Assembly (NCBI RefSeq): GCF_019635515.1
Contig: NZ_JAHBZI010000001.1
Coordinates: 992,001 to 1,056,000 of the forward strand
Direction: 5' to 3'
DNA length: 64,000 nucleotides
DNA from: Sphingomonas sp.
GTDB lineage: Bacteria > Pseudomonadota > Alphaproteobacteria > Sphingomonadales > Sphingomonadaceae
Positions 2,942-21,426 of this stretch are shown here, piece by piece (the first letter of the stretch is position 1; each line of letters opens with the position of its first letter). Below the pieces are notes generated by a model. It searched no databases and was not told the DNA's origin. It worked only from the letters and a program-made list of their open reading frames with translations. A program made the position numbers and the translations under genes.

Positions 2942-2974
2942 CTGAAACTCCAGCGCCGCTCAATGCGAGCGACT

Positions 2975-2987
2975 TTATCAACGATAA
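2975..2987. promoter_or_regulatory. tet operator 1 (tetA-proximal)
   Basis: TTATC-AAC-GATAA is a 13-bp dyad in the tetA-tetR intergenic region. Its centre is exactly 30 bp from the second copy at 3005-3017, the arrangement expected for TetR dimers controlling divergent tetA and tetR promoters. Confidence 0.9.
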
Positions 2988-3004
2988 GGATGTGGACATA
3001 GAGC

Positions 3005-3017
3005 TTATCGGTGATAA
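3005..3017. promoter_or_regulatory. tet operator 2 (tetR-proximal)
   Basis: TTATC-GGT-GATAA has the same arms as the operator at 2975-2987 with a different 3-bp centre. It lies 28 bp before the tetR start codon and so should mediate autoregulation of tetR. Confidence 0.9.
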
Positions 3018-3045
3018 ATTGTCAAGCACTGGCGAAGGAACGTGA

Positions 3046-3672: not shown

Positions 3673-3851
3673 AGGCTTATGCCCCTTTGCCGCCCCAACT
3701 GCCACGACACCGATCCGCTTTGCACGATGCCCATGACCTCACGGCCGAGCTGGCGGTCGATGACCGGCCGCCACGGGACAAGGGAAATGAGCGGTATCTT
3801 GCCAGACAGGATACCGCCATTCACGAGGTTTCGATGATTATTGCGCCGCAT
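3669..3851 (-). pseudogene. Detached 3' end of a VirD2/TraI-type relaxase gene
   Basis: The C-terminal 40 or so residues of this short frame (LVPWRPVIDRQLGREVMGIVQSGSVSWQLG...) repeat the C terminus of the full relaxase ending at 5310 (LVPWRPIIDRQLGREVAGIMQGGSVSWQLG...). At the DNA level 3688-3784 and about 5331-5425 are near-identical direct repeats with scattered differences. The N-terminal part of this frame is unrelated. It is therefore a remnant lying behind floR, not a functional gene. Together with the intact copy it brackets floR. Confidence 0.85.
3688..3784. repeat. Direct repeat flanking floR, copy 1 (relaxase 3' end)
   Basis: About 97 bp closely resemble 5331-5425, the true 3' end of the relaxase gene. 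Both include ACTGCCACGACACCGA and CGGCCGCCACGGGACAAGGG. The two copies are in the same orientation and bracket the floR gene. They differ at several positions, so this is not a fresh duplication. Confidence 0.85.
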
Positions 3852-3878
3852 CGGAGCGGGCTTGCTTCCAGTCGTCGG

Positions 3879-5309: not shown

Positions 5310-7364
5310 CTATAGCCCCAACCCCCGCCGCCGCCCTAACTGCCACGACACCGAACCGCCCTGCATGATACCCGCGACCTCGCGGCCGAGCTGGCGGTCG
5401 ATGATCGGCCGCCACGGGACAAGGGTGAACTCGTGGCTCTTTTCCACGATGGCGAACTTGCCGCTCGTTAGCTGGACAGTCCCGGTGAACTTGCCGCTGA
5501 CACTCTCACCATCCTTGGCGGCTCGGAACGGCAGCGCCTTGCCCTCGGCCATCTCCGCACCGGCGCGCGCAACTTCCCGCTCGCGCAGGGTGGCGAGAAG
5601 ATTGCGCCGGTAGAAGATTCGGCCGTCCCGCGCTCGGGTGGCATCGCCCTGTTCGATATGATGCTCGCGCCGCTGGTCCATCGCCTCGCGCACCTGCTGG
5701 CCGAAGCCGGCCGGGGCAAGGTCGGCCGTCTCGCCATGGATCAGCCTCCGGTCCAGCCAGGTCGCACCGTCCGATCCGATCTGCCTTTGCAGATCGACCG
5801 GGGAAAGGACGTGAACGCTGGCCTGCCGGTCGCGGCCGGCGTCGTATTCGGCCGCGCGGCTGACCAGATCGTCGGGGATGCGCCATTGGTCGGCGTCGAT
5901 CCGCTCCGCGATCCCGGCGCGGCGCAACGCCTCCAGCCGCCGGACATGGGCATCGAGATAGCCCTCATAGTCGCCACCCGGAACGCGGCCCTCGAATTTC
6001 GCCTGCTCCAGATGACGGCTCGGCCGATAGATGCGGTCCTCGGCGATGGCGATGATGGTGCGGTCGGAGGGCCGGGCCGTCACCTCGGCCGGGCCGATCT
6101 CGACGACGCTGCCTATGCGGGCATCCTCCAGCCGCTCGGGCGCGACGCCGGCGATGTGGTGTGTGCGGCCGTCGATCCCGTCCACCACGATTGTCAGGTT
6201 CTCGCCCAACTCGTCGGACAGATGCTTGTCCACGGCACGGCCGATGATGGGTGTCTCGGGCGCTCCGTCATGGATTTGGAAGCTCATGGGATCGCGTTCG
6301 CCGCCCTGCGGGCCGAGCGCCTTCTGCATGGTGCGGATAATGTCGCCCCGCTCGCCCAACTCGCGCAGGGCCAGCTCCATGTCCTTGCTCAATTCCCAAA
6401 CGCCGGGCGCGTGCTCGGTCGCCAATCCCATCTTCTCCAGCTTGCCGAGACGGCGCAGGCGCAGCGTCCGCTCGAACTGCCGCCTCGGCGCTGCCGGCTC
6501 ATGGCGCAAGTCGAGGAAACAGGCGTCGGCTTCCTCTGTCATCGCGCGGTCGAACCGGGTGAATCGGTCTTGGTCGATTTCGGCCGACAGCTTGCGGGTC
6601 CGCTCGATCTCGGTGACAGGACCGAGTTCCAGACTGGCAAGCTCGCTCGCCCGCTCGCGCAGGCCGGCGGAAAGGTAGTCGCCGTTGATGACTAGATCCC
6701 CGCCCGTGTCGTCGCGGCCGTTGACGATGACATGCACATGGGGATGGCCGGTGTTGTAGTGGTTCACCGCAACCCAATCGAGTTTCGTGCCGAGGTCGGC
6801 TTCCACCTGTTTCATGAAATCGCGGGTGTAGGCCGTGAGGTCCGATAACTCCGCGCTGTCCTCTGGCGAGACGATGAATCTGAACTGATGGCGGTCGTCC
6901 TTGCCGCGATCAAGGAAGGCGTCGCCATCGGCGCGGTCCTCGGTTCCCGAATAGAGCTGGCCGCGCTCGCCGTCGCGTGACGTGCCGTCGCGCTGAACAT
7001 AGCGCAGATGCGCGCGGGCACGGCCGCCCTTCCATGCGGCCCGGACGCTGCGCTGCTTGACGATCACACGGCGGCTGCCCGGCTGGCGATGTTGCCATTG
7101 GCCGGAGATGTTCCGGGCGCGCACGAAGCTCGCGCCCCGGCCGCGCTTCACGCCCTTGCCGCTGGCGACCACGGAACGGGACCGGCCCGGCGATGACGGG
7201 CGGGCGGATGACGGCATGGAAGGATCGCGGGCGGCTGCCGCCTGATGCTGCCGGGTGATCTTCTTGACCTGCGTGAAAAAGCTCTTGGTCTTGCCAGCCT
7301 TCGGCGTGTCGGATCGGATGCGGCCGGGCTTCGGTCGGAAGCGGTTTTCGTCGTCGGTGCTCAA
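5310..7364 (-). CDS. VirD2/RlxS-type conjugative relaxase with DUF3363 C-terminal region
   Basis: The 684-residue protein should nick oriT and pilot the transferred strand. After a basic N terminus (residues 1-120) comes a relaxase core. The metal-binding histidine motif NHYNTGHPHVHVIVNGRD is at about 201-218 (His 202, 207, 209, 211), and a candidate nucleophile tyrosine lies near residue 122. Residues from about 270 to the end form the large C-terminal part typical of the relaxase-DUF3363 family, closing with the WRPIIDRQLGREV box. In the Mesorhizobium symbiosis ICE the equivalent is RlxS; floR literature calls fragments of it virD2. It heads no downstream transfer genes here because floR and tet(G) follow. 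A candidate oriT lies directly upstream at about 7400-7560. Confidence 0.9.
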   Translation of the reverse strand: MSTDDENRFRPKPGRIRSDTPKAGKTKSFFTQVKKITRQHQAAAARDPSMPSSARPSSPGRSRSVVASGKGVKRGRGASFVRARNISGQWQHRQPGSRRVIVKQRSVRAAWKGGRARAHLRYVQRDGTSRDGERGQLYSGTEDRADGDAFLDRGKDDRHQFRFIVSPEDSAELSDLTAYTRDFMKQVEADLGTKLDWVAVNHYNTGHPHVHVIVNGRDDTGGDLVINGDYLSAGLRERASELASLELGPVTEIERTRKLSAEIDQDRFTRFDRAMTEEADACFLDLRHEPAAPRRQFERTLRLRRLGKLEKMGLATEHAPGVWELSKDMELALRELGERGDIIRTMQKALGPQGGERDPMSFQIHDGAPETPIIGRAVDKHLSDELGENLTIVVDGIDGRTHHIAGVAPERLEDARIGSVVEIGPAEVTARPSDRTIIAIAEDRIYRPSRHLEQAKFEGRVPGGDYEGYLDAHVRRLEALRRAGIAERIDADQWRIPDDLVSRAAEYDAGRDRQASVHVLSPVDLQRQIGSDGATWLDRRLIHGETADLAPAGFGQQVREAMDQRREHHIEQGDATRARDGRIFYRRNLLATLREREVARAGAEMAEGKALPFRAAKDGESVSGKFTGTVQLTSGKFAIVEKSHEFTLVPWRPIIDRQLGREVAGIMQGGSVSWQLGRRRGLGL
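5331..5425. repeat. Direct repeat flanking floR, copy 2 (within intact relaxase gene)
   Basis: This is the counterpart of 3688-3784 and encodes the final residues of the full-length relaxase. Recombination between the two copies would excise a circle of about 1.6 kb carrying floR. Confidence 0.85.
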
Positions 7365-7399
7365 GGGCGCGACTCCAGCCCAAACCGTCGAAAACAGGC

Positions 7400-7560
7400 C
7401 GATATGGGCCTATGGTGCCGCTCGAAACCCTGCAAAGCCAAGGCTTTGCACGAAATCGCGGCACGCGGCCCCTCAAAACCATGGTGCCGGAACCGGCCAC
7501 CTAACCAGTGTGCAGACAACAATAATTTCCAGAAGCGGCCCGATATGGTGCCGTCTTCTT
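7400..7560. other. Candidate origin of transfer (oriT) upstream of the relaxase
   Basis: This lies in the 313-bp gap between the relaxase and the transglycosylase gene, which has no convincing ORF. It contains three direct copies of ATGGTGCCG at 7412-7420, 7481-7489 and 7544-7552. Between the first two is a perfect inverted repeat with 9-bp arms and a 2-bp spacer at 7431-7450 (TGCAAAGCC / GGCTTTGCA). Hairpin plus spaced direct repeats beside the relaxase gene is the usual oriT design. The nick site cannot be named by eye. Confidence 0.5.
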
Positions 7561-7677
7561 TAATCTTGCCCTCCGCCCTTTCCGCCTGTTCTGCCCCTCC
7601 TGCCGGGAATCCAGCCGGGCAAAAACCTGCCTGACAGGACACCGGAATGAACGCCGCCGAGCGCGGGAACGCCGTCC

Positions 7678-8610
7678 TCATGGCGTTCCCGAACCGCTCG
7701 CGTCGGCGACGAAAATGCTGTCGCCCCGTGACTCCGCATCGACGGGATCGCGCGCCGGAACGCTCGCGCGGCCGTCGCCGGATCGTGCGTCGGACGGCGG
7801 CACGGCGACAGCCTGCGCATCGCCCGGACGCATGACGAATAGCGGTGCCTCGCGCCAATCCGGCGGCGGTGGCGGTGCCGATGACGGCGCTTCGGTTGCA
7901 GCCGCGCCGCCGAGGGTCGGCGCAAGCGCGGCGACATAAGCCCGCGTTTCGGCCGGCAGGGTGCGGCCGGTCGCAAGGTATTCGTCATAGCGGCCGGGAC
8001 CGGCATTGTAGGCCGCCAGCATCGCCGCGACATTGCCGTAGCGGTCGAACATTTCGCGCAGGTAGGCCGTGCCCGCCATGATGTTGTCGCGCGGATCGTA
8101 AGGATCGCGGCCGAGGCCGTAGCGGACGCGCAGGCCCGCCCATGTGTCGGGCATCACCTGCATCAATCCCATCGCGCCGGCCGACGAAACCGCGCGCACA
8201 TCGCCCGCGCTCTCGGCGCGCAGCACCGCGACGATCCAATGCTCCGGTATGCCGAACCGCTGCGATGCCTCGGCGATGTGAGCCGCATAGGGATGGGCGG
8301 CGGCGGGGCGCTCGACGGGCGCGGATTGCGCGACCGCGACGCCCGATCCGTCGCAGACGGAAAGCGTGCCGGCCAGTATCAGGACGGCATAATGCCATGC
8401 AGTCCTGTCTCCGCTTCGACACCAGCCTGCCAGCGTGCGCGCTGCGGTCAAGGGCAAGGCGCAAGCGCCGGCCGATGGCCGCCCCTGACCTTCGCTGCGC
8501 GCGCCGGCCGTCCGGTGGCCGAGCGGGACGAAGGGATGAGACGGCTTTCCCGCGAACAAAGGGATGACGATCTTGGGCCGAATGGCGGGCCGGACGCGCG
8601 CGGCCGTCAT
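7678..8610 (-). CDS. Lytic transglycosylase of the conjugation module
   Basis: The soluble-lytic-transglycosylase fold is clear from about residue 100. It has the catalytic Glu in VLRAESAGDVRAVSSAGAMGLMQVMP, then the YDPRDNIMAGTAYL and AAYNAGPGRYDEY motifs. It would open peptidoglycan for the transfer channel. A hydrophobic stretch at about 70-90 (HYAVLILAGTLSVCDG) looks like a signal or anchor, so the real start may be further in than the ATG at 8610. The C terminus is proline-rich. The ATG overlaps the stop of the DUF736 gene in an ATGA, showing translational coupling within the transfer operon. Confidence 0.88.
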   Translation of the reverse strand: MTAARVRPAIRPKIVIPLFAGKPSHPFVPLGHRTAGARSEGQGRPSAGACALPLTAARTLAGWCRSGDRTAWHYAVLILAGTLSVCDGSGVAVAQSAPVERPAAAHPYAAHIAEASQRFGIPEHWIVAVLRAESAGDVRAVSSAGAMGLMQVMPDTWAGLRVRYGLGRDPYDPRDNIMAGTAYLREMFDRYGNVAAMLAAYNAGPGRYDEYLATGRTLPAETRAYVAALAPTLGGAAATEAPSSAPPPPPDWREAPLFVMRPGDAQAVAVPPSDARSGDGRASVPARDPVDAESRGDSIFVADASGSGTP

Positions 8611-8942
8611 TCCTCATCCTCGACTTTCCGGGGGTGCTTCCAACGTAGCGTCCAGACCGAAGGATCGTCGTTGGACTGGAACAGCTTGGCGCGGATCGGG
8701 AACGGGAAGATCGGTCCCTCCAACCGCATCGACACGAAGTCGCCGGCATTTTCGCTGGCGTCCTTCCATGCCGGGCCGGCGTCCGGGCCGTCCTCGCTAT
8801 CGAGACGCACGCGATAGTCGGGGGTGTTTTTCACGTCGCTCGGCTTGGCCGGGACTATGAACAGCTTTTCGTGGAGGCCGAACGAATGAAGCTCCCCGGC
8901 GTAGCCGGTTTCGGTGCGGGTGAAGGTGCCTATTTCTGCCAT
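8607..8942 (-). CDS. DUF736 family protein
   Basis: This 111-residue protein begins MAEIGTFTRTETGYAGELHSFGL, the standard DUF736 opening; the open frame extends upstream but that segment overlaps traF. DUF736 proteins of this size are constant members of ICE transfer blocks in Rhizobiales and Sphingomonadales, between TraF and the transglycosylase. Their biochemical function is unknown. The stop overlaps the start of the transglycosylase gene by 4 bp. Confidence 0.85.
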   Translation of the reverse strand: MAEIGTFTRTETGYAGELHSFGLHEKLFIVPAKPSDVKNTPDYRVRLDSEDGPDAGPAWKDASENAGDFVSMRLEGPIFPFPIRAKLFQSNDDPSVWTLRWKHPRKVEDEE

Positions 8943-8977
8943 GGGAATCTCCTGTGGTTGGCTTTCGGGGGATGGTT

Positions 8978-9523
8978 TCATTGCGTCGGTGCGCGCCACT
9001 CGTAGCGGCCGACGCCTTCCTCATCGGTCCAGAGCTGGACCGCTCGGCCGATGACGGAAGCTGCGGGGATGGGTCCGAAATAGCGGCCGTCGAGACTGTC
9101 GCGGACTTCCCAGTTCATGAGGAAAAGCTGGCCGTCGCCGATCACGCGGCAGCCCTGCCAGACGGGCAGATCGCGGCCGAGCCTGTCGCGCTCCAGCGTC
9201 TCGCCCATCTCGATCCCGTCAACCGTGATCGTGCGGCCGGTGCGGCAAACCCGCTGTCCCGGCAGACCGACGACGCGCTTCAACAGCGGGACGCCCTGCG
9301 CAATATAGCCGCGCTCGACCATGAAGGCGGCGAGCGGTTCGGGCGGCATGACGGCGACCAGCTCGGGCACGTCGAGCGCGTCGGCCGGCTCGACGGTGTA
9401 GAAGCCGATGGGCGCGCTGGCGGTGGCGTTCCAGATGAGTTTCGTCGGCGTCTCGACCGCGCTTGCGGCGGCGATGCCGATGATGGCGAGCGCCGTCACC
9501 GTGAGGGTGCGGCGGCGCGTCAT
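8978..9523 (-). CDS. traF: Conjugative transfer signal peptidase TraF (S26 family)
   Basis: The 181-residue inner-membrane serine peptidase has one N-terminal hydrophobic segment (residues about 6-22), then NATASAPIGFYTVEP with the catalytic Ser, and LLKRVVGLPGQRV with the catalytic Lys, the S26/LepB-TraF pair. In IncP systems TraF matures the pilin. The ATG at 9521-9523 overlaps the stop of the DUF2840 gene in an ATGA. In the Mesorhizobium ICE, traF lies in the operon governed by rdfS, matching the order here. Confidence 0.9.
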   Translation of the reverse strand: MTRRRTLTVTALAIIGIAAASAVETPTKLIWNATASAPIGFYTVEPADALDVPELVAVMPPEPLAAFMVERGYIAQGVPLLKRVVGLPGQRVCRTGRTITVDGIEMGETLERDRLGRDLPVWQGCRVIGDGQLFLMNWEVRDSLDGRYFGPIPAASVIGRAVQLWTDEEGVGRYEWRAPTQ

Positions 9524-10038
9524 GGGTCGATCCTTCGGCGATGAAGCCAAGCGGCATGTCGCTCGGCGGTGTAGGCGTGCGGCTCCAGATTGGCGGTCAG
9601 CCGGTTGTGGACGTGCCGCCAATGCTCCGGCGAAGCGTCGGCTGGATCGAGGCCGAGCGCGTCCACGTCGTCGATGGCTGCAAGCGCACGCTGCACCTTG
9701 GGCCAGCTATCGAGGCGCAACAGGATTGCGCCACCGGGGCGCACGAACGGCAATGTCTGGAACGGCTCGCCGCGACCGATGGCGCGCACAATGTCGATGC
9801 GCGAAACGACAGTGCCGTGCTCGCCAGATGCCCAACGGACGAAGGCGAAGACGCTGCCCGGCGCGAAGCCGACGATGCTGCGGCGACGGTCGATGATCTG
9901 CTCGTAGCTCTTGCGGCCGAAGCGTATCCAGTGCTCGACCTTGCGTTTCTCGAAGGTCAGCTCGACCAATGTTGTGAAGGGCGCAGGTCCGTCCGGCAGC
10001 GGATGGCCGTGCGCGCTGCGATGGGCGCGACGGGTCAT
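9520..10038 (-). CDS. DUF2840 family protein
   Basis: This 172-residue protein carries the conserved block TFEKRKVEHWIRFGRKSYEQIIDRRRS and GSVFAFVRWASGEHGT typical of DUF2840, again a fixed ICE companion with no known activity. The ATG at 10036-10038 has GGAG eight bases upstream. The stop overlaps the traF start. Upstream only a 22-codon frame separates it from repA, where related elements usually carry a parA gene. Confidence 0.84.
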   Translation of the reverse strand: MTRRAHRSAHGHPLPDGPAPFTTLVELTFEKRKVEHWIRFGRKSYEQIIDRRRSIVGFAPGSVFAFVRWASGEHGTVVSRIDIVRAIGRGEPFQTLPFVRPGGAILLRLDSWPKVQRALAAIDDVDALGLDPADASPEHWRHVHNRLTANLEPHAYTAERHAAWLHRRRIDP

Positions 10039-10102
10039 TGTTCGTCTCCGGTGATGTGCTGGGGGCTGCGCGGGCGCAGCGCGTCGAGCGCGGCGGCCGT
10101 CA
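10037..10102 (-). CDS. 22-codon frame between repA and the DUF2840 gene
   Basis: ATG at 10100-10102 overlaps the repA stop, and the frame runs MTAAALDALRPRSPQHITGDEQ to a TGA that overlaps the DUF2840 start. The double ATGA overlap looks like coupled translation. The sequence resembles no domain I know. It may be the scar of a deletion that removed parA, or a coupling peptide. Confidence 0.35.
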
Positions 10103-11176
10103 TGGCTCGCCCCTTCGGGCAGAACCGGCACCACGCTTCGCCTGCGCGCGCGTCAAAGAAAAAGAGTTAGAATCTCTGTTAGATAAGTTAGCGGTCGGAT
10201 TCCGCTTTTCAGGCCAAAGCGTTAGCTGCGGTTCGTGCGCCTGATCTGCCGATAGTGGTGCGCCTGATGTGCCGATACCCCGTGCGCCTGATCTGCCGAT
10301 GGCATTAACAGGGTTATCAACAGTGCCTGTTGACAGGTTTTCGGGGCGGATGCGCAGCAGCTCGCGGCCGTCTTCCCGCTCGATCTGGAGCCGATAGCCG
10401 GGGAGTGGCTGGCGGGCCGCGATCCGGCGCAGGTCGAGCGCGAAGTCGGACGGCCGCGCGAGGCTGCCGGATTTCTGGTGAAGATGCGCGACCTCGAAAA
10501 TCCAGCCGTGGCGCTGGTGCCCGGCGTGCTTTCTGGCGACGCGGTAAAGCCATCGCTCGATGCCGCCAGTCAGCCGGAAATAGGCCGGGTCGATGGTCAG
10601 GACCAGCGAACGGTCGATGACGCTGTTGTAGAACCATTCGGGCAGGACGAACTCCATGCCCTCGACGCGGCCGGCGCGCGTCGTCATTTCCTCCCATTCG
10701 TTGATCCATGAGAATTGCCGGCGACGCCAATGCGGGCCGTTGCGGATCGTGGTGGCGATGACGGTCGATTGCAGCCGCGCCAGCGCGGCTTTCAGAAGCC
10801 GGTATTGGTGATTGCCGGTCGGCCGCCCGATGGCGCGCAACAGATGGTAAGGCGTAAACCGGACAAAGCGCGACGTGGTGAGGCCGTTGTTCTCGGCCGC
10901 GACGATCTGCGAGGCGGCCCATATGAGCACATCGGCATCCCAAATGGTCGCCATGCCGTGATCGGGCATCCCGAACACCTGCACCTCGATGTCGGCGGCC
11001 TTGTAGAGAATCGGCTTGGTGCGTGGGGTCTTCGCCAGCGAGAAAAACGGCCGTTCCATCAAGTCGCGCTGGTCGCGCGGCGGCGCATCGCCCGTTGCGA
11101 CCACGAAGGGGTCTAGGCGGCTGCGCTCGCTGTCCTCGGTAGGGTGCGCGGGGTCGTGATCGTCCTCGCGCAGCAT
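10100..11176 (-). CDS. repA: Replication initiator protein A (RPA family)
   Basis: The 358-residue initiator has the conserved RPA block, from DQRDLMERPFFSLAKTPR through GMATIWDADVLIWAASQI and RFTPYHLLRAIGR to LYRVARKHAGHQRHGW. RPA proteins start replication of broad-host plasmids and let excised ICEs persist. The gene follows directly on the rdfS-like gene. Oddly, its C-terminal coding part (10235-10300) contains three 19-bp direct repeats plus a DnaA-box-like site, so the origin may be inside the gene. The last 60 residues are less conserved in type than the core. Confidence 0.9.
   Translation of the reverse strand: MLREDDHDPAHPTEDSERSRLDPFVVATGDAPPRDQRDLMERPFFSLAKTPRTKPILYKAADIEVQVFGMPDHGMATIWDADVLIWAASQIVAAENNGLTTSRFVRFTPYHLLRAIGRPTGNHQYRLLKAALARLQSTVIATTIRNGPHWRRRQFSWINEWEEMTTRAGRVEGMEFVLPEWFYNSVIDRSLVLTIDPAYFRLTGGIERWLYRVARKHAGHQRHGWIFEVAHLHQKSGSLARPSDFALDLRRIAARQPLPGYRLQIEREDGRELLRIRPENLSTGTVDNPVNAIGRSGARGIGTSGAPLSADQAHEPQLTLWPEKRNPTANLSNRDSNSFSLTRAQAKRGAGSARRGEP
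10235..10300. repeat. Three 19-bp iteron-like direct repeats inside repA
   Basis: Copies of GTGCGCCTGATCTGCCGAT lie at 10235-10253, 10258-10276 (one mismatch) and 10282-10300, with periods of 23 and 24 bp. This is the size and helical phasing of Rep-binding iterons. Confidence 0.85.
10314..10322 (+). promoter_or_regulatory. DnaA-box-like 9-mer next to the iterons
   Basis: TTATCAACA differs by one base from the consensus TTATCCACA and lies 13 bp from the last iteron. A small dyad CCTGT-TG-ACAGG follows at 10326-10337. Such 9-mers occur by chance; the position beside iterons is what makes it notable. Confidence 0.5.
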
Positions 11177-11446
11177 CTAGCACTCGTCCCGTTCTTCGGG
11201 CGTGAGCGGACGCGCCGGAAAGACGGTGCCGGCGGTCTTGTCGCGGGTGGATTTGCGTTCGCCGACCGCACTCCAGTCTTCCAGATCGCGGACGGTGTAG
11301 AGGACGCGACCGCCGACCTTGCGATAGGTCGGCCCGGTGCCATAGGTTCGATGCTTCTCAAGGGTTCTGATGGATATGCCGAGGAAGCGCGCGGCTTCCT
11401 TGGTGCGCAATAGGCGCGGCGGCAGGCCCGCAAGCGGGTTGGGCAT
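11177..11446 (-). CDS. AlpA/HTH_17 excisionase, RdfS-like recombination directionality factor
   Basis: The 89-residue protein has a MerR-like winged helix typical of excisionases: LLRTKEAARFLGISIRTLEKHRTYGTGPTYRKVGGRVLYTVRDLEDW. In the Mesorhizobium ICE the homologous RdfS turns the integrase from integration to excision and leads the operon with traF. The gene here heads the minus-strand run rdfS-repA-DUF2840-traF-DUF736-transglycosylase in the same way. Its promoter must lie in the 462-bp gap upstream, shared with the divergent DUF2285 gene. The cognate integrase is not in the window. Confidence 0.85.
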   Translation of the reverse strand: MPNPLAGLPPRLLRTKEAARFLGISIRTLEKHRTYGTGPTYRKVGGRVLYTVRDLEDWSAVGERKSTRDKTAGTVFPARPLTPEERDEC

Positions 11447-11908
11447 GGATCACCTCCAGTCGGGATTGGACTGCCGGGGGGCGGCAGCGGACTGTGGCGA
11501 ACCATGGCGAGGGATCGGCGGCGCGTAGCGTGCCGCATTTGCGACTATGCGTTGGCGGCACCCCCCTCGGGGATGTGACTGCCCAAATAGATGAGAGATT
11601 TCAGCGGTCGTCGCCTGCCGTGCTGAATAGGCAAAGACATTCGCACGTGGTTCAGCTAAGAATGTGGGTGGAGCAGACGCGCTGCTCTGGGGCGTCGAAA
11701 CCCCTCACGAATGGCTGGTGCTGGCCAGAACGGCACCAACTCCTTGACCTATGGTCGGGGAGCCTGTGGCGTATACAACAGGCTTTCCGAGCTAAAGGCC
11801 ATGGGGCCGTTTCGTGACGGTTTCGAACTCCCCGATCACCAAGAGTCAGAGAGAATCGTTTGCGGGGGCGCACCGCAGACAAAGTTCTCTCGGATACGGG
11901 GAATAGCT
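11447..11908. promoter_or_regulatory. Divergent control region between rdfS-like and qseM-like genes
   Basis: This 462-bp region holds no convincing gene; the short frames in it lack coding character. It should contain the promoters of the excisionase operon (leftward) and of the DUF2285 gene (rightward). An inverted repeat GAGCAG-ACGCG-CTGCTC at 11671-11687 is a candidate operator. I could not fix a -35/-10 pair with normal spacing. Confidence 0.5.
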
Positions 11909-12196
11909 ATGCGGGTTCCCGTCGAACTCGATCCCGATGTGGATGATAACGCGCCGACCGGCGATGCGATAACTGCCTATGACGAACGGCACTACGTCAC
12001 CTATCTGCGCCTTCTCGATGCGAACGCCGAGGGTGCGGACTGGAAGGAAGTGGCTCGGATCGTGCTTCACCGCGATCCGGCGGCCGAGGAACTTCGGACC
12101 TATCGTTGCTGGCAAAGCCATCTCGAACGCGCGCAATGGCTTTCGCATGAGGGCTATAGGAAGATTCTGGAACAGGCGGCAGCTAACAAGGCGTGA
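11909..12196 (+). CDS. DUF2285-only protein, QseM-like antiactivator
   Basis: The ATG at 11909-11911, with GGGGAA about eight bases upstream, gives a 95-residue acidic protein. Its body (DERHYVTYLRLLDANAEGADWKEVARIVLHRDP...RCWQSHLERAQWLSHEGYRKIL) is the DUF2285 helix-turn-helix variant without a DUF6499 partner. In the Mesorhizobium ICE, QseM is a DUF2285-only antiactivator that binds FseA and keeps the element silent. It is one of the few plus-strand genes of the ICE segment and is divergent from the rdfS-like gene. Assignment to QseM rests on domain content and position, so the exact role is inferred. Confidence 0.75.
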   Translation: MRVPVELDPDVDDNAPTGDAITAYDERHYVTYLRLLDANAEGADWKEVARIVLHRDPAAEELRTYRCWQSHLERAQWLSHEGYRKILEQAAANKA

Positions 12197-12321: not shown

Positions 12322-12855
12322 TCAGTTGCTGGTCCATTCTGAACAGGTCAGCTCATACGTTACCTCGCCGTGCTCCGTGCCAGGTATGGGGTCGGGAAAA
12401 TCCAAGAAATCCGTCCGCGTGTGTTTCATACCAATCTTCTCCATTACCCGGCGCGACCCTTGGTTGACCGCCATTGTATTGGCCACAATTTTATCATACC
12501 CGGCAACCTCGAAGCCCCAACTGATGAGAGCCGACGCGCCTTCAGATGCCAGCCCCCGACCCCAAGCTTCCCGGCGTAGTCGATATCCAATTTCAGCTAC
12601 CGCCTTCACTTTCGGCAACAAGCAGAACCAGCCGACGAACTCGTCATCCACATTGCGTCGCGCCGTCCAGACGTTCGGCTCGGTCCCTCTTGGCATGAGA
12701 AACGGCGCGGTCGCCGGATCGGCCCAATGATGATCAACCGCGCCATTGTTGAGAAAGCGCATCACTTCTGGGTCAAGCTCTAGCTGGATGAAGTCGATGC
12801 GATCTACCGGGATGCAAGGACTGAGCGTCAAACGCACCGTCTTTAGTAAGGCCAT
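12322..12855 (-). CDS. GNAT-family N-acetyltransferase (RimJ/RimL type)
   Basis: The 177-residue protein starts MALLKTVRLTLSPC, as RimJ-like acetyltransferases do. It keeps the acetyl-CoA fold: a central sheet with EIGYRLRREAWGRGLASEGASALISWGF and the C-terminal NQGSRRVMEKIGMK helix. The longer frame to 12915 adds an unlikely leader. The substrate is unknown; relatives acetylate ribosomal proteins, amino acids or small toxins/drugs. It is a passenger between the two ICE control genes, with base composition lower in GC than the chromosome. Confidence 0.82.
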   Translation of the reverse strand: MALLKTVRLTLSPCIPVDRIDFIQLELDPEVMRFLNNGAVDHHWADPATAPFLMPRGTEPNVWTARRNVDDEFVGWFCLLPKVKAVAEIGYRLRREAWGRGLASEGASALISWGFEVAGYDKIVANTMAVNQGSRRVMEKIGMKHTRTDFLDFPDPIPGTEHGEVTYELTCSEWTSN

Positions 12856-13092
12856 AGCAAATGCTCTCAAAAGAAATTTCGAGTTGGTCGTGCGAATTCG
12901 TGGATTGCGCAACAATGTTAGTCAGTTGAGCGTCCGATTTGTATTCTATTAGCTTTTCCAACCCATTCATACCGAAGTTATCGCGTAAATCCACTTCTCC
13001 GAAGGCCGGTTTTCTAGCCTTTTTCATGTCGCACGTCATCGTTGCAGTTGGCAGAAAATTTGCGACATACAACAAGATGGTGCTCGGAATAA
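12856..13092. other. AT-richer spacer upstream of the GNAT gene
   Basis: This 237-bp stretch is lower in GC than either neighbour. A 107-codon minus-strand frame crosses it (13096 to 12773), but that frame overlaps the GNAT gene by more than 80 bp and shows no recognisable domain, so I do not call it a gene. It probably contains the GNAT promoter. Confidence 0.4.
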
Positions 13093-13681
13093 TCAACGTT
13101 TGTTGGGCCTGATTGGATAGTGGAGCAACAGGCGATAGCCGCCGAGCATCATCTTAATACCGTGAGCGACTAGGCGGCGGGCCTTGTTCTTGCGCGGGTC
13201 GTTCTCGAAATCCTCTTTGGTGCCGCGAAAGCAGAACAGGACTTCGGCGATGGTGCGATAGCTTTCGCCGCGCAACCGCGCGTCGAGCGCGCGCAGGGAC
13301 AGAATATGCCATTGCCGGAGCTGGGCGGGAACGGTCCGGAAGTCGGGGCCGGGTGCGCGGCCATTGAGGGACCGCCAGAAACGGCGGGCGGCGTGAGCGC
13401 GAAGCTCCAGAAAATTATCCATCGGTAACGTGGCGGCGAAGGCACCCGAGTCCGACACCGCCTCGGGCAGCCAGAATTGATGTGAGACGCCATCCACCTG
13501 CCAGATGCCGTGCCAGCCATCGGCAGCACGGCGCATGTCGAGGTCGGAGAGATGGGCCAGCGTCAATATTGGTTCGGTGTCGCCACCCTTATGCTCGACC
13601 GGCGAGAGCATCACCGCTTGAGGATGAAGGCTCGGGCTCCAGATTGGTGGCGACCGGTCATGCGGCGCGTCGGGATCGCAC
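13093..13681 (-). CDS. DUF2285 domain half of an FseA-like activator (entered by +1 frameshift)
   Basis: This frame carries the activator body: KNKARRLVAHGIKMMLGGYRLL at the end and QLRQWHILSLRALDARLRGESYRTIAEVLF (the DUF2285 helix-turn-helix) in the middle. It is open upstream to 13740, but from 13682 upward it encodes nonsense overlapping the DUF6499 frame. The natural reading runs from GLRFP in the other frame directly into CDPDAPHDRSPPIW here, if one base (13681) is skipped. Spliced that way the product has about 259 residues. FseA of the Mesorhizobium ICE is made the same way from two frames. No good independent start with a ribosome-binding site is seen, though Met at 13611 is possible. 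Confidence 0.78.
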
Positions 13682-13873
13682 GGGAAATCGCAAGCCCCAG
13701 CGATCCGCGAACGCTTCAAGGTCACGGCCGGATGGTCCACCGGTCAGTGCGATAGTCTGGAACTCATGACGATAATCGTCATTCCGGCGCAAATATTCCC
13801 AAGCGAAACCGGCGGCCGGAATATGCTTCGCGTGCCTGTATGCCGCCGGCGAACGCCAGTCGGTGCTTAGCAT
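13658..13873 (-). CDS. DUF6499 domain half of an FseA-like activator
   Basis: Starting at ATG 13871-13873, this 71-residue frame begins MLSTDWRSPAAYRHAKHIPAAGFAWEYLRRNDDYRHEF, the DUF6499 N-terminal domain that precedes DUF2285 in FseA-type activators. Read in zero frame it ends VRSRRAA at 13658. The shift site is TTT CCC GTG, with CCC at 13684-13682: a +1 slip of the prolyl-tRNA from CCC to CCG puts the ribosome into the DUF2285 frame. The 201-bp gap upstream contains an imperfect dyad (GCCGCT...AGCGGC, 13951-13978) that could be an operator. A sequencing error of one base would look the same. Confidence 0.8.
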   Translation of the reverse strand: MLSTDWRSPAAYRHAKHIPAAGFAWEYLRRNDDYRHEFQTIALTGGPSGRDLEAFADRWGLRFPVRSRRAA

Positions 13874-14074: not shown

Positions 14075-14605
14075 TCATCTGCTGGAAAACACATGCATCT
14101 CGTCGTGTGCGGTTTCGACTGTAAAAAACTCGCCGTTCATTTCAGCGTCACGGGCCATTGCTTTCCAATCAATGTAGTAGCGCAGTGCCTCGGGGATCGT
14201 GACGCCGCTTTCAGCGGTCAAGTCCTCCATGAAGTCGGCAAGGCTAGCGAACTGGCCGTGATAGCAGTCCCGCAAGGCGGTTTCGGCTTGGTCCATGTCA
14301 CCGTCGCACTGATCCAGCAGGCCAGCACCTAGCGCGCCATGCTCGGCGATGAAAGCGCCCATACGTGCCACGGTGTCGATGCCGGCATATTCTTTGATGG
14401 TCACGCCCTCGAAGCCTTCATAGTCGTGAATGGCGTATTCCTCCGCGTGCTCGATGGGGGACCGTGCGAGCATGGCCGCAATCTCGTCCCTGATTGCGTC
14501 TGCGTCCTGATCCGCGTCGATCCAAGCCCCATGCAGATAGCCGTTGTTGTAGGCGGCAAGGCAGGCGACATAGATGTGGGGATTGCTGTCGGAAAGGTTG
14601 GTCAT
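14075..14605 (-). CDS. ardA: Antirestriction protein ArdA
   Basis: This very acidic 176-residue protein is typical of ArdA, which mimics bent B-DNA and occupies type I restriction enzymes. Visible landmarks are IYVACLAAYNNGYLHGAWIDADQDADAI at the start, the antirestriction stretch with LARSPIEHAEEYAIHDYEGF, and EALRYYIDWKAMARDAEMNGEF at the end. It protects the element when it enters a new cell as unmodified DNA. A strong hairpin lies 21 bp ahead of the start codon, in the leader. ArdA should not block the type II enzyme encoded further right. Confidence 0.93.
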   Translation of the reverse strand: MTNLSDSNPHIYVACLAAYNNGYLHGAWIDADQDADAIRDEIAAMLARSPIEHAEEYAIHDYEGFEGVTIKEYAGIDTVARMGAFIAEHGALGAGLLDQCDGDMDQAETALRDCYHGQFASLADFMEDLTAESGVTIPEALRYYIDWKAMARDAEMNGEFFTVETAHDEMHVFSSR

Positions 14606-15072
14606 GTCTCTGATCCTCGGGTTTGGGGTTCAGAGCAGCGAAGCGCTGCTCCTGAACCCTTGCCCGGCGGCGAGCCAAGGGTAGCAAGGCGCAGGAAAAG
14701 CCTCTGGCACCGTGGAATAAATGGAGGGGACCCGCTTGCGGGGAGAGGGCCGTTTATGCCGCGAAAGGCCGGAGAGTTTTCTTGCGCCGCGCGAGGGCAA
14801 CGCCCTTAGCAACCTATGTAAGAGAACCAGCGGCAACCGTCGGCCCGGAGGCGACTGCGCGTCATGATGTATGGGTTCAATCATGTGGTTGAATGCCCCC
14901 GACATGGCTCTCAACGGTGCGGTCCGGCACCTTTCTCATTGACCCAAACCCGTGCCTATGATCTTCTTTTGTTCACATTTTCGTTCCGTCTGAAACGGGT
15001 CGATTCGCGCCAACGTAATTGGGCACGGAGGCATTAGTCCTTTATCTGCTCGAATGAACGATAAGGAACGTG
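14606..15072. other. Gene-free gap between ardA and the defence operon
   Basis: This region has no convincing ORF. Apart from the ardA leader hairpin it holds smaller palindromes, such as TTCAA/TTGAA at 14876-14893. The AT-richer stretch 14950-15060 should carry the rightward promoter of the defence operon. No controller (C) protein gene is present. Confidence 0.5.
14626..14659. promoter_or_regulatory. Strong hairpin in the ardA leader
   Basis: Arms 14626-14640 and 14644-14659 pair over 15 bp with a 3-nt loop and one bulged base (AGCAGCG/CGCTGCT inner, GGGTTCAG/CTGAACCC outer). It lies in the 467-bp gene-free gap between ardA and the methyltransferase gene. It may be an RNA leader structure or a single-strand promoter for expression on entry. 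Confidence 0.65.
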
Positions 15073-16791
15073 ATGACCAATATTGATCTCGCCACCATGC
15101 TACGGGAACCATCGTTTCCCGGCCTGTGTCCCGTTACCGATGCAGTGGATTCGATGGCAAATGCGGGCATCGAGGAACGTGGCGCGATCTTCACGCGACG
15201 CGAGGTTGTCGAATTCATTCTCGACCTTGCTGGCTATGACGCCGCCTCTCCACTGCACACGCGCCGCCTTCTCGAACCGTCCTTTGGACATGGCGATTTC
15301 TTGCTACCTGCAATTGATCGTTTGCTGGTCGCATGGAAGCGCAGCGGGGTCGGATCAGACGCTCTCCTAGACGCCATCCGGGGCGTGGAGCTTCACCGTG
15401 CGTCATTCAACCGGACCCATGCTCTCGTGGTTCAGAAGCTTCGCGTCGCTGGCATCGGGTTGCGGGATGCAGAAAGCCTTGCCGATCGGTGGTTGATGCA
15501 AGGCGATTTCTTGCTCGTCCCTCTGCCGGGCAAGTTCGATGTCGTCATCGGAAACCCGCCCTATGTGCGACAGGAGCTAATCCCGAATGCGCTCATGGTC
15601 GAATATCGCAGCCGCTACCGGACCATCTATGACCGCGCCGACATCTATATCCCGTTCATCGAACGGTCGCTGAGTCTGCTGGCAAAAAACGGGCAGCTCG
15701 GTTTTATCTGTGCGGATCGTTGGATGAAGAATCGCTACGGTGGGCCGTTGCGCGCGATGGTCGCGGATGGTTTCCACTTGAGCGTTTATGTGGACATGGT
15801 GGACACTCCGGCCTTCCATCAGGAGGTTGTTGCCTATCCGGCCATCACCATCATCGGGTGTGAGAAATCTGGCCTGACTCGCGTTGCCCTTCAGCCTGAG
15901 ATTTCTGATAGCGCCCTCTCGCAGCTTGCCGCTACGCTCCGATCCCCAGAAACACCTCTTTTGGCTTCTGGTGTGAGAGAGATTCAGGCCGTCACCTCCG
16001 GCGCAGAACCGTGGATTTTGGACTCATCCGATCAACTCTCGCTTGTGCGTAGACTCGAGTCTGAATTCCCATTGATTGAGGATGCCGGATGCAAGATTGG
16101 CATCGGTGTGGCGACCGGAGCCGACAAGGCGTTCATCGGAAACTTCGACGCGCTTGATGTGGAGGAGAACCGGAAACTTCCGCTCGTGATGACCCGCGAT
16201 ATCATGGATGGCAGCGTCAAATGGCGCGGACTTGGCGTGGTCAATCCGTTCGGTGACGATGGCAAACTGGTGAAGCTCGACCAATTCCCGAAGTTGAAAC
16301 GCTATCTTGAAGAGCGCCGTGGGCTAATCGCCGGGCGGCATGTTGCGCAGAAGGCCCCGGCCAATTGGTATCGTACCATCGACCGGATTTATCCCGAGCT
16401 GGCGGATGAGCCGAAGCTGCTGATCCCGGATATTAAGGGCGCAGCGCATATTGTTTACGAGGAAGGTCGCCTCTATCCCCATCACAACCTGTATTTCATC
16501 ACGTCCGACACATGGGAGATGCACGCGCTACAAGCGGTTCTACTTTCGGGCATAGCAAGGTTGTTTGTAGCAACGTACTCGACGCGGATGCGAGGCGGCT
16601 ATCTTCGCTTTCAGGCACAATATCTGCGACGCATTCGTTTGCCGGACTGGAAAGGCGTGACGCCGAAGATGCGCCAAGCTCTTAAGAAAGCCGCCGAAGC
16701 GAGTGATGTTGAGGCATGCAACAACCTGACGTTTGATCTATACGGCTTGTCAACTCAGGAGAGGGCCACGCTTGGGGGAGCGGAAAAGTAA
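15073..16791 (+). CDS. N6-adenine DNA methyltransferase of a PaeR7I/XhoI-type system
   Basis: This 572-residue enzyme is predicted to methylate adenine in CTCGAG and so protect host DNA from the neighbouring endonuclease. It has the AdoMet-binding motif [11 protein letters not shown] at about 66-76 and the catalytic NPPY motif at 161-164 ([12 protein letters not shown]), followed by [15 protein letters not shown] target-recognition region of about 300 residues completes it. ATG 15073 is preferred to the GTG at 15070 because AAGGA lies 5 bp upstream. The stop overlaps the endonuclease start (TAATG). The predicted specificity comes from its partner, not from this protein alone. Confidence 0.9.
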
Positions 16792-17537
16792 TGGGATTGG
16801 ATTTAGCGGATTACGAGGCGAAAGCCCGAGATGCAGCGATGGCATTTTGGGGAAATCGCCAAAAAGCCCTTCAAGCAAAAGTTGAGGCTGGAAAGACAGA
16901 CACAGGTGAACGCGGCGCTGTGACCGCTGGCAATACAATGGATGGGTTCACGGCGCTGATGATCGACCTCGTTGAGGCGAATGGTCTAGGACACGCAGAA
17001 ATCTACCGGCACCGAAAAGTGCTGACTTTGCCGGGATTTTTCCGCCCGACCAAACTCTGGGATATTCTCGTCATCCTTGATGGCAGACTGATTGCTGCTG
17101 TCGAAATGAAGAGCCATGTTGGCCCGTCATTCGGAAACAACGCGAACAACCGTGCCGAAGAAGCCATCGGCACGGCGCACGATTTCTGGACGGCGTATCG
17201 TGAAGGCGCATTCGGCGCTGATGCAGCCCGACCCTTTGTCGGCTGGCTGGTGATGGTGGAAGATGCTGATAAGTCACGGCGTCCATCCAAGCGGGAAGCC
17301 TCGCTACACTTCCCGATTTTTGAGGATTTCAAGGGGGCGTCATATCTCGAGCGCTACGACATCCTTTGCAAGAAGCTCGTCCTTGAAAACCTCTATACAG
17401 CCGCCTGCGTCCTTGCCTCGCCGCGTTCCGCCGAAACAACGGGCGACTATTCAGATATGTCGGACCTAACGAGTTTGAAGTCCTTCGTTGCAGCATTCGC
17501 CGCGCACATCGCAGCCGAAGCTGCCCGGTCTCAGTAA
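16791..17537 (+). CDS. Type II restriction endonuclease, XhoI/PaeR7I family
   Basis: At 248 residues it matches the family's usual length, and it carries the family signature: [16 protein letters not shown] and [28 protein letters not shown]. The nuclease centre is D91 with E105-x-K107, a PD-(D/E)xK arrangement. Family members cut C^TCGAG. The gene starts within the stop of the methyltransferase gene (TAATG), the usual coupling of modification and restriction. A CTCGAG site occurs inside the gene itself (17346-17351) and in the methylase gene (16054-16059). The catalytic residues are intact, so activity is expected. Confidence 0.92.
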
Positions 17538-17549
17538 CCGGAGGGGAAC

Positions 17550-18875
17550 ATGAATCTCGACGACAAGCATGTTTATCGTGTCGGGAGCCATTCCGAATCT
17601 TGGAATGACCTCCCCGCAGGCGATGACGAACTCGACAAATTTATCGCTACGGCGCGCAAGCGGATCGAGCCGTGGCTGTCCGCCGTGTTTCAGGCTGAGC
17701 ATCTTAATCTGCTTATCGGGAGCGGCTTCACAACCGCAGTAGGATATATGGCCGGGGCCGCTGCAACGGGCATGGGCAAGGTTGTGTTCGGTAGTGAATT
17801 TGACGCGGAGATCGACAATTATGCCGCGAGTGAAGCCGCGCTCATGGGGCGCGGCACGGCCAATATTGAGGATCAGTTCCGCGCGGCCCTCTCAGTCTAT
17901 GAAGGACTGAGGATCATCGATGCGGCGAAAGCGTCCGCCCTCAAAGACGCAATGGATCGGCAACTCCGGGATTTCCTTGAGTCACTTCTCAAAACTGAAG
18001 CGGGGCTAATCGGTGGCGATCCGGAAAAACGGGTTGTCGCCGAAGGTGCGGTGCAATCGTTCCTCCTCAGCTTTGCCAGCCGCGCGGCTTCGCGGGAGCG
18101 GCTTCATGTCTTTACGACGAACTACGACCGTTTGATTGAGCATGGCTGCGATCTCGCCGGGCTTCGTATCATCGACCGTTTCGTTGGGGCGCTCACGCCA
18201 GTTTTCCGGTCAGCCCGTGTCGAGGTTGACGTACATTATAACCCGCCAGGTATTCGCGGAGAGCCCCGCTTCATGGAAGGCGTCATCCGACTGACGAAAC
18301 TTCACGGCTCCCTCGACTGGCTGTTCAGCAAAGCAGACCGGAAGATTTCGCGGAAGGGCATACCCTTCGGTGCGCCAACCGATCACACTGACCTGCCTAA
18401 AAATCCCGTCGATACGGTAATGATCTATCCGAACCCGGCAAAGGATGTCGAAACCACCCAGTACCCCTATGCCGAGCTATTCCGCGATTTTGCCGCCGCC
18501 ACGTGCAGGCCCAATGCAGTCGTCGTGACCTACGGCTATGGCTTTGGCGACGATCATATCAACCGTGTGCTGCTCGACATGCTGACGATCCCGTCAACGC
18601 ATCTAGTCGTGTTTGCTTACTCAGCGGATGACCGATTGAAAGGCTTTCTCGCGCGGACTCGGGATGCACAGGTATCGCTGCTGATCGGCTCTCACTTCGG
18701 CGACCTTACTACGTTGATCGAGAATTATCTCCCGAAGCCAACGCTAGACTATATTACCGGGCGTATGACCGAACTTATGAAGCACCGTCCGCCGGAACAT
18801 ACGCAAGCGCCGGACCCTGCTCTCCCGGTTGCGGATGACTTCGACGAAGTATTGGGCGGTGGAACAACGGCATGA
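17550..18875 (+). CDS. SIR2-domain NADase of a SIR2-HerA defence pair
   Basis: In this 441-residue protein the NAD-binding loop LLIGSGFTTAVG is at 54-65. FTTNYDRLIEHGC at about 188-200 carries the invariant Asn (N191), and KLHGSLDWLF has the catalytic His (H252). This is the defence-type SIR2 arrangement, which destroys NAD rather than deacetylating proteins. ATG 17550 has GGAGGGG just upstream and comes 12 bp after the endonuclease stop. The gene overlaps herA by 4 bp (ATGA). SIR2-HerA pairs (also called Nezha) form large complexes that deplete NAD on phage infection (established for the family). Here the pair is the rear half of a four-gene operon. Confidence 0.9.
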   Translation: MNLDDKHVYRVGSHSESWNDLPAGDDELDKFIATARKRIEPWLSAVFQAEHLNLLIGSGFTTAVGYMAGAAATGMGKVVFGSEFDAEIDNYAASEAALMGRGTANIEDQFRAALSVYEGLRIIDAAKASALKDAMDRQLRDFLESLLKTEAGLIGGDPEKRVVAEGAVQSFLLSFASRAASRERLHVFTTNYDRLIEHGCDLAGLRIIDRFVGALTPVFRSARVEVDVHYNPPGIRGEPRFMEGVIRLTKLHGSLDWLFSKADRKISRKGIPFGAPTDHTDLPKNPVDTVMIYPNPAKDVETTQYPYAELFRDFAAATCRPNAVVVTYGYGFGDDHINRVLLDMLTIPSTHLVVFAYSADDRLKGFLARTRDAQVSLLIGSHFGDLTTLIENYLPKPTLDYITGRMTELMKHRPPEHTQAPDPALPVADDFDEVLGGGTTA

Positions 18876-21070
18876 CTACACCCATCGAGTCCATTGCTGG
18901 CTTGGTGATCGGCGCGGTTGAGTCCGTTTCTCCCGATGAAATCCGCATCCTGCTCGATCTGGATGCACCGCAGGCAACTGCGCTCAACACGGGGACGCCT
19001 GCCGCCTTTCCCCGACTTAACGGTTATGTCCTCGTACCCAATGAGGCAGGGGCGACAGTTGCCTATATATCATGGATCGGGATCGAACGGTCGCCCTATC
19101 CCAAGCGGTCGGGCCTGAAAGATTTCGGCCTGATCGACCTCCCGTTTCCACTGCGAAAGATGTGCGTCTCTCCTGTCGGTACGCTGACCTCTCGCCGGGA
19201 TCGCGCGTCGAAACAGACAGTTTATGAACTGTCGCGCGGTGTCGCCGCGTTTCCCTCGGTGGGCGACCAAGTACTCATGCCGACGCCTGAACAGGTCGAA
19301 GCTATTGTTGGCGCGAAAGAGTCGGATCGGCGTGTCCGCATCGGAACCTCGGCCCTTGCGTCGAGCGCCGAGATTAAGGTTGATCCCGACAAGCTGTTCG
19401 GCAGGCATCTCGCCGTGCTTGGCAACACGGGTAGCGGCAAATCCTGTACGGTTGCTGGGCTGATCCGCTGGTCGCTCGACGCCGGAGCAAAAGCGATGCG
19501 TGATGCGGGCCGAAAAGGCCATCCGAACGCGCGCTTCATCGTTCTCGATCCTAATGGCGAATATGCAAAAGCCTTTACGGATCAAGGAGATCAACTCCGT
19601 CTGTTCCGCGTCCCTCCCGTTGTTGGAGTTGAAAAGGAGTTGGATGTCCCGGCATGGCTTTGGAGCGGTCATGAATGGACCGCTGTTGCTCACGCAGCGC
19701 CGGGTACGCAGCGCCCGCTTCTGCTCCGTGGTATACGCGAGCTGAAATCAAACCAGACGGAGGAGCTTCCCCGTGAGGTTCAGGTACGACGCTACGTCCA
19801 TTCATACTTGATCCAAATCCGCGACATGCTCGGTCGGGGTGTCGGTGCGTTTACGGGAAACAAGAAATACGAGTGCCGCGACCTGCTTCAGAATATTTCT
19901 TCGGACTGCGAGGCATTCCAGCCATCTGTCGAAGAACCTTGGAGTAGCGTGTTGGGTGCAATCGTTCAGGAGGCTTCGGCCCTTATCGCTGCACGGCGCT
20001 CAGGTCCGCAACTTCAATATGTAACGGATTTCAGCATAGTCGACATTGAAGCCATCAGAGACAGACTGACGGCTTACATGGATAGCGTTGACGACGATGC
20101 CGTCGCTACCTCGATCAGTGAGGACGCACCCATCCCGTTTGATGTGAACCTTTTGGCAGACCATCTTGACCGCATAGCTGCTGGACAAGGTAATTTGGCC
20201 GGGTTCATCAGCACACTTGGACTTCGTATTCGTAGCATGCTCGCGGATCAGCGGCTTGGAAACGTTATTGGAAAGACACCACCAACCAGCTTCGAGGAGT
20301 GGCTTAAGAGTTACATCGGCGACGACGGCGCAAGCAATGGCCCATTAGCGATCATTGATCTTTCCTTGGTTCCATCCGAGGTTGTTCACGTTGTTGTTGC
20401 CGTGCTGGCGCGGGTAATTTTTGAATCCTTGCAACGCTATCGGCGGCTTCATGCAGAGGGGCTATCCCTACCCACGGTACTCGTTCTGGAAGAAGCCCAC
20501 ACTTTTATTCGGCGGGGCAAAGACGATGAAGGTCCAGCGTCCAGCCCTAGCCAACTCTGCCGAGAAACCTTCGAGCGCATTGCCCGCGAGGGACGCAAAT
20601 TCGGTTTAGGTTTGGTGCTGTCTTCGCAGCGCCCATCAGAGCTGTCGCCGACCGTGCTGGCTCAGTGCAACACCTTCATTCTTCATCGTATCGTCAACGA
20701 TTCCGACCAGAACCTCGTCGCACGTCTCGTGCCTGACAATGTGGGAGGGTTGTTGCGCGACCTACCCAGCCTGCCATCAAGGCAGGCGATCCTATTGGGG
20801 TGGGCGACGCCTATTCCCGTACTGGTCGAGATCGACGAACTGGTAAAGGAGCATCAGCCTCAATCTGCCGACCCTGATTTTTGGGATGTCTGGACAGGAG
20901 CTAACGAAAGGCCCATTAATTGGGGCGAAGTAGCCATGCAATGGTCGGTTTCATCTCCGTCAGCCGTTGCAAAAGCGGAAGAGGCGGACGGTGCTGGTGT
21001 CCCGGTCGTCCCTGATCCACCGGCGGGTTTGGCCGATCCGTTTGGGTTAGACGATGATATTCCATTTTAA
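18872..21070 (+). CDS. herA: HerA-like hexameric ATPase of a SIR2-HerA defence pair
   Basis: The 732-residue HerA/FtsK-superfamily ATPase has an N-terminal HAS-barrel-like region (1-150), then Walker A GNTGSGKS at 184-191. It has a long inserted helical region at about 270-470, Walker B VLVLEEAHTFI near 534-544, and the HerA signature SSQRPSELSPTVLAQCNTFILHR. In the known system it forms a ring on which SIR2 assembles. It starts inside the SIR2 stop codon. Its last 24 bp overlap a convergent short frame. Behind it the accessory DNA ends within about 300 bp. Confidence 0.92.
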   Translation: MTTPIESIAGLVIGAVESVSPDEIRILLDLDAPQATALNTGTPAAFPRLNGYVLVPNEAGATVAYISWIGIERSPYPKRSGLKDFGLIDLPFPLRKMCVSPVGTLTSRRDRASKQTVYELSRGVAAFPSVGDQVLMPTPEQVEAIVGAKESDRRVRIGTSALASSAEIKVDPDKLFGRHLAVLGNTGSGKSCTVAGLIRWSLDAGAKAMRDAGRKGHPNARFIVLDPNGEYAKAFTDQGDQLRLFRVPPVVGVEKELDVPAWLWSGHEWTAVAHAAPGTQRPLLLRGIRELKSNQTEELPREVQVRRYVHSYLIQIRDMLGRGVGAFTGNKKYECRDLLQNISSDCEAFQPSVEEPWSSVLGAIVQEASALIAARRSGPQLQYVTDFSIVDIEAIRDRLTAYMDSVDDDAVATSISEDAPIPFDVNLLADHLDRIAAGQGNLAGFISTLGLRIRSMLADQRLGNVIGKTPPTSFEEWLKSYIGDDGASNGPLAIIDLSLVPSEVVHVVVAVLARVIFESLQRYRRLHAEGLSLPTVLVLEEAHTFIRRGKDDEGPASSPSQLCRETFERIAREGRKFGLGLVLSSQRPSELSPTVLAQCNTFILHRIVNDSDQNLVARLVPDNVGGLLRDLPSLPSRQAILLGWATPIPVLVEIDELVKEHQPQSADPDFWDVWTGANERPINWGEVAMQWSVSSPSAVAKAEEADGAGVPVVPDPPAGLADPFGLDDDIPF

Positions 21071-21355: not shown

Positions 21356-21426
21356 TTATTTTTCAATGCACTAGGTTATCTCAAAATAATCGAGTGGGAA
21401 TAGGCTGGCTGCTGAGGAACATGACG

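What the first reader, a model, noticed from the sequence alone, without database searches (positions are those of the whole stretch)
13093..13873. FseA-like ICE activator split across two frames, probable programmed +1 frameshift
A DUF6499 frame and a DUF2285 frame join seamlessly (GLRFP to CDPDAPHDRSPPIW) if one base is skipped at TTT-CCC-G-TGC (13687-13678). CCC followed by G allows the proline tRNA to slip +1 onto CCG. FseA of the Mesorhizobium symbiosis ICE is known to be made by +1 frameshifting between two such frames. Here the same domain split recurs in a sphingomonad element.
Basis: partly seen in the sequence, partly recalled or inferred. Interest (0 to 1): 0.8.

Follow-up and report, generated by a model that had tools for sequence, protein, structure and literature searches.

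The report
FseA ICE activator needing +1 frameshift

Summary
On the minus strand a DUF6499 frame (13873-13658) and a DUF2285 frame (to 13093) stand in +1 relation and join at TTT-CCC-G-TGC (13687-13678). It is not an error or a decayed gene: I collected 178 homologous pairs split in the same +1 way, and both halves are under purifying selection. Among 79 close relatives (69-96% identical) 78 are split and one is fused. This is FseA. Its +1 frameshift is published, with about 61% of 4,709 homologues split and UUU named as the shift site. The proposed proline slip on CCC-G is not supported: TTT followed by C or T is kept in 177 of 178 split genes, while the next codon is CCC in only 25 of 93 broadly sampled ones. 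The best reading is that tRNA-Phe slips from UUU to UUC. Extra detail: GGG in the WG motif and CGA just before TTT are strongly over-used. The gene lies in a 38-kb ICE at guaA with integrase, Trb/TraG, relaxase, an RdfS-like gene preceded by a perfect inverted repeat (candidate FseA box) and an acidic QseM-like protein. A new, well-preserved member of a known kind; frameshifting was not measured.

The parts
13658..13873 (-). fseA frame 0: DUF6499 (PF20109) with the FseA-type motif AWEYLRRN; ends at TGA 13660-13658
13093..13687 (-). fseA +1 frame: middle region and DUF2285 (PF10074, RovC DNA-binding domain)
   Evidence: A1 profile matches RovC 6xz5 at 1.3e-8
13681..13699 (-). frameshift site TGG GGC TTG CGA TTT CCC G: SD-like/WG motif, CGA codon, slip codon UUU followed by C
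   Evidence: comparison of 178 split homologues
11530..11561 (.). perfect inverted repeat GTGCCGC-N18-GCGGCAC, candidate FseA box, 84-115 nt upstream of the rdfS-like start codon
   Evidence: 1 match, 0 in 100 shuffles; conserved upstream of most rdfS orthologues in related loci
11177..11446 (-). RdfS-like HTH_17 gene, expected FseA target
11909..12196 (+). DUF2285-only acidic protein (pI 5.1, net charge -6, read from MRVPVEL), QseM-like candidate antiactivator; the start codon is a choice within the open frame 11711-12196
5310..11176 (-). transfer operon: RlxS-type relaxase (DUF3363), SLT transglycosylase, DUF736, TraF-type S26 peptidase, DUF2840, RPA replication initiator
21389..21402 (+). 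probable right end (attR) of the ICE, holding an 11-bp copy of the guaA 3' end (GAGTGGGAATA)

Best explanation
The two frames are one gene, fseA, encoding the transcriptional activator of ICE excision and transfer. Most ribosomes read frame 0 and stop at the TGA at 13658, giving only the DUF6499 domain. A minority shift +1 when tRNA-Phe (GAA) on UUU re-pairs with the overlapping UUC, and go on to make the 259-aa DUF6499-DUF2285 activator. The SD-like UGGGG and the CGA codon just upstream probably raise the slip rate. The activator would bind the inverted repeat ahead of the rdfS-like gene and switch on excision and transfer, and the acidic DUF2285-only protein would oppose it. Shown here: gene structure, conservation, codon bias, inverted repeat, gene neighbourhood. 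Inferred: that shifting occurs in this strain, its rate, the slip codon, and the regulatory links.
For: 178 homologous pairs split +1 at the same place; 78 of 79 close relatives split. TTT-Y in 177 of 178. In 99 non-redundant split genes TTT is 99/99 against 31% background, GGG 65/98 against 15%, and CGA 34 of 39 Arg codons against 9%. Substitutions fall mainly at third codon positions in both halves. Fused homologues mostly lack the site. Literature: FseA frameshift and about 61% split (PMC10359603); UUU named as the FseA shift site, and UUU_Ynn called especially prone to +1 shifting in bacteria (PMC5009743). Context: integrase, Trb/TraG, relaxase, rdfS-like gene and candidate FseA box.
Against: No translation data for this strain. 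The Gly codon here is GGC, so the SD-like element is weaker than in most relatives. SD-to-slip spacing is 6 nt, not the 3 nt of prfB, so its role is uncertain. No 3' RNA structure stands out (z -0.67). Homologues are related by descent, so codon-bias p-values overstate independence. No LuxR/TraR-type regulator lies in the ICE.
Confidence: 0.9

Rival explanations
1. Same programmed shift, but the proline tRNA slips on CCC to CCG.
For: The site reads TTT CCC G here; CCC-N slips are known for E. coli tRNA-Pro (PMC8324841); CCC is common in close relatives (65 of 79).
Against: The codon after TTT is CCC in only 25 of 93 broad relatives and 33 of 99 non-redundant ones; a slip on it that keeps the amino acid is possible in 29 of 93, against TTT-Y in all but one. 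Under this account the first T of TTT would not need conserving.
Confidence: 0.08
2. The two frames are made as separate proteins that associate, the second from an internal start.
For: Proposed for Azorhizobium rihF1a/b (PMC9601964). GTG/ATG codons exist about 24 codons into the +1 frame.
Against: No start codon in the +1 frame near the SD-like motif, no clear ribosome site ahead of the downstream GTG/ATG, the D-P and W residues between the site and that start are conserved, and the codon constraint at TTT and CGA would be unexplained.
Confidence: 0.04
3. A sequencing error or decayed gene.
For: A few relatives do carry extra lesions (L158, L219) and one is fused with one base fewer (L175).
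Against: Same site and direction in 178 split genes from many genera and assemblies; purifying selection on both halves.
Confidence: 0.02

Closest known systems
FseA (msi172-msi171) of ICEMlSymR7A, Mesorhizobium japonicum
   Same: DUF6499-DUF2285 order, +1 split after a WG motif whose Trp codon is four codons before UUU, linked rdfS-traF-rlxS type genes, inverted repeat upstream of rdfS, DUF2285-only acidic partner
   Different: No TraR-type regulator in this ICE; inserted at guaA; the candidate box is a 7-bp repeat with an 18-bp spacer lying further upstream of rdfS than the published 28-bp box, whose exact sequence could not be compared
RovC of Yersinia (PDB 6xz5)
   Same: DUF2285 family (profile match 1.3e-8)
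   Different: Published as an activator of a type VI secretion system; only distant sequence similarity, single-sequence search 0.88
prfB (RF2) +1 frameshift
   Same: +1 slip at a pyrimidine run after an internal SD-like stretch of G
   Different: prfB slips at CUU-U before a UGA with 3-nt SD spacing (PMC12421855); here UUU-Y, no stop codon in the A site, 6-nt spacing

Membership tests
FseA | N-terminal DUF6499 with AWEFLRRN-like motif and C-terminal DUF2285 | tested here: met
   PF20109 4e-25, PF10074 7e-29, AWEYLRRN
FseA | +1 frameshift site at the end of DUF6499 (W G . . UUU) | tested here: met
FseA | frameshifting occurs and yields the fused protein | not testable with these tools
   needs a reporter or mass spectrometry
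FseA | inverted repeat (FseA box) upstream of rdfS | tested here: inconclusive
FseA | carried on an ICE with rdfS, TraF, RlxS and Trb genes | tested here: met
FseA | antagonised by a QseM-like acidic DUF2285 protein | tested here: inconclusive
   candidate present (27.6 bits, pI 5.1); antagonism untested
FseA | transcription controlled by TraR quorum sensing (R7A arrangement; not a defining feature of the wider family) | tested here: not met
   no autoinducer-binding regulator within the ICE

The most novel reading that the evidence does not exclude
The fseA shift signal is an extended cassette, UGG-GGG-YUN-CGA-UUU-Y, in which an SD-like stretch at 6-nt spacing and a weakly paired CGA codon in the E site act together to drive tRNA-Phe forward, a stimulator layout different from prfB.
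Probability: 0.4. Interest if true: 0.4.

Novelty: new member of a known kind. Interest (0 to 1): 0.27.

Why it matters
The activator is missed or misannotated by gene finders, so ICE control in many alphaproteobacteria is under-recognised. The comparison supports one slip codon over the other and gives codon-level evidence for upstream stimulators that can be tested directly. The element carries tet(G)- and floR-type resistance genes, so control of its transfer has practical bearing.

Tried and rejected
NCBIfam has no model for these proteins. A downstream RNA stimulator was looked for and not found. The 2015 PNAS paper on FseA and a 2015 commentary are not held, so the original site mapping was taken from a review. 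No tRNA gene in the window or the 40 kb to its left. A direct-repeat search with 15-base words for att sites failed; a short guaA-derived repeat was found instead. Slip at the codon before UUU was rejected: synonymous re-pairing in 0 of 93. Transcriptional slippage was rejected because the T run is only three long (sequence; general knowledge that slippage needs longer runs).

Full report
OBSERVATION. On the minus strand an ATG at 13873, behind GGAGGTGACGCC, opens a frame with DUF6499 (PF20109, 4e-25) that ends at a TGA at 13658. A second frame, displaced by +1, carries DUF2285 (PF10074, 7e-29) to 13093. At TGG GGC TTG CGA TTT CCC G TGC (13699-13678) skipping one base joins them into a 259-aa protein.

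IS IT PROGRAMMED. PF20109 was searched in 299 genomes of the order, 385 of the class and 398 of the phylum, and the regions were extracted and re-scanned. Together with 80 loci found from the DUF2285 half this gave 178 distinct pairs in +1 relation and 28 fused; one further split pair, L222, has the site but a second indel. Among 79 close relatives (69-96% identity; Shinella, Paracoccus, Brucella, Sphingomonas, Devosia and others) 78 are split and one, Neomegalonema L175, is fused with one base fewer. Counts of substitutions by codon position show a third-position excess in both halves (DUF6499 part 586/422/1466; DUF2285 part 1634/1030/4145), so both frames are translated and selected. Exceptions: L103 has TGTC in place of TTTC, and L158 and L219 have extra stops.

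WHICH CODON SLIPS. In 93 split loci of the order and class the codon after TTT is CGC in 41, CCC in 25, CCT in 9, TGC in 4 and others, and a slip on it would keep the amino acid in only 29. TTT followed by C or T is kept in all 178 but one (a few have it one codon later). A synonymous slip at the codon before TTT is never possible (0 of 93). The conserved element is therefore UUU-Y, on which tRNA-Phe can re-pair to UUC or UUU. The peptide is the same for a UUU or a CCC slip, so this rests on comparison, not on the product. The literature agrees: a 2016 review names UUU as the FseA shift site, notes the WG beginning four codons upstream, and calls UUU_Ynn especially prone to +1 shifting in bacteria (PMC5009743). 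CCC-G is a feature of part of this lineage only, and 13 of 79 close relatives have TCC.

CONTEXT OF THE SITE. In 99 non-redundant split genes TTT is used 99/99 against 31% elsewhere in the same genes; the Gly codon of WG is GGG in 65/98 against 15%; and where the codon before TTT is Arg it is CGA in 34/39 against 9%. Four fused genes of one clade with Arg there use CGC. The review states that only the first two bases of the Gly codon are conserved; the third-base bias seen here adds an RNA-level component, in line with the UGGGGG remark in PMC10359603. Weak E-site pairing has been proposed to favour +1 shifting in RF2 (PMC5009743), which is why CGA is read here as a possible stimulator; that step is inference. 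The window itself has GGC and CGA. The p-values assume an independence that related genes do not have. The spacing from the G run to UUU is 6 nt against 3 in prfB (PMC12421855). No strong downstream structure was found (z -0.67). Split and fused states change at least ten times by parsimony on an approximate tree, with at least four forced by well-supported branches.

ELEMENT. The window holds the right part of an ICE. Integrase lies at C1:975379-976635 beside guaA (C1:973504-975060); Trb/VirB-type transfer genes (CagX/TrbG, VirB8/TrbF, TrbL, a TrbE-like ATPase, a T2SSE-family ATPase) and TraG follow to about 989.6 kb. A copy of the guaA 3' end (GAGTGGGAATA) occurs exactly twice in 84 kb, at C1:975048 and window 21391, giving an element of about 38.3 kb. 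In the window lie the relaxase-to-RPA transfer operon 5310-11176, an rdfS-like gene 11177-11446, a QseM-like gene ending at 12196, an acetyltransferase 12322-12915, fseA, and ArdA 14075-14605. Ahead of the rdfS-like gene a perfect inverted repeat (11530-11561) has no match in 100 shuffles and is kept in most related loci. In R7A the FseA box is two hexamers 16 bp apart upstream of rdfS; the one here is similar in form but further from the start codon, and the sequence of the R7A box was not readable, so it is called a candidate.

KNOWN OR NEW. FseA, its +1 frameshift, the share of split homologues (about 61% of 4,709), the QseM antagonism and the spread through alpha-, beta- and gammaproteobacteria are published (PMC10359603). 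This locus is a new, intact-looking member of that kind.

Noticed in passing
window 1766-5093: The ICE carries a tet(G)-type efflux gene (above the NCBIfam cut-off), a TetR repressor and a FloR-type florfenicol efflux gene next to the relaxase.
   Followed up: partly
window 15070-21070: XhoI-like restriction-modification pair followed by a SIR2-like protein and a HerA helicase: two defence systems as ICE cargo.
   Followed up: partly
own genome C2:614195-615272 and C1:681173-684197: Two further FseA-like genes in single frames; one has an RdfS-like gene downstream, the other a LuxR-type autoinducer-binding regulator nearby. Split and fused forms coexist in this genome.
   Followed up: no
L175, around the frameshift site upstream of 5001: Neomegalonema perideroedes: close relative whose fseA is in one frame with one base fewer near the site; natural fusion or sequencing error.
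   Followed up: no
L158, L219: Split fseA copies with an extra stop in the +1 frame, apparently decayed.
   Followed up: no
many split loci, e.g. L011, L018, L022: A DUF2285-only ORF lies just upstream of fseA on the same strand, a recurrent pairing of a possible antiactivator with the activator; in the window the QseM-like gene is instead on the opposite strand.
   Followed up: no
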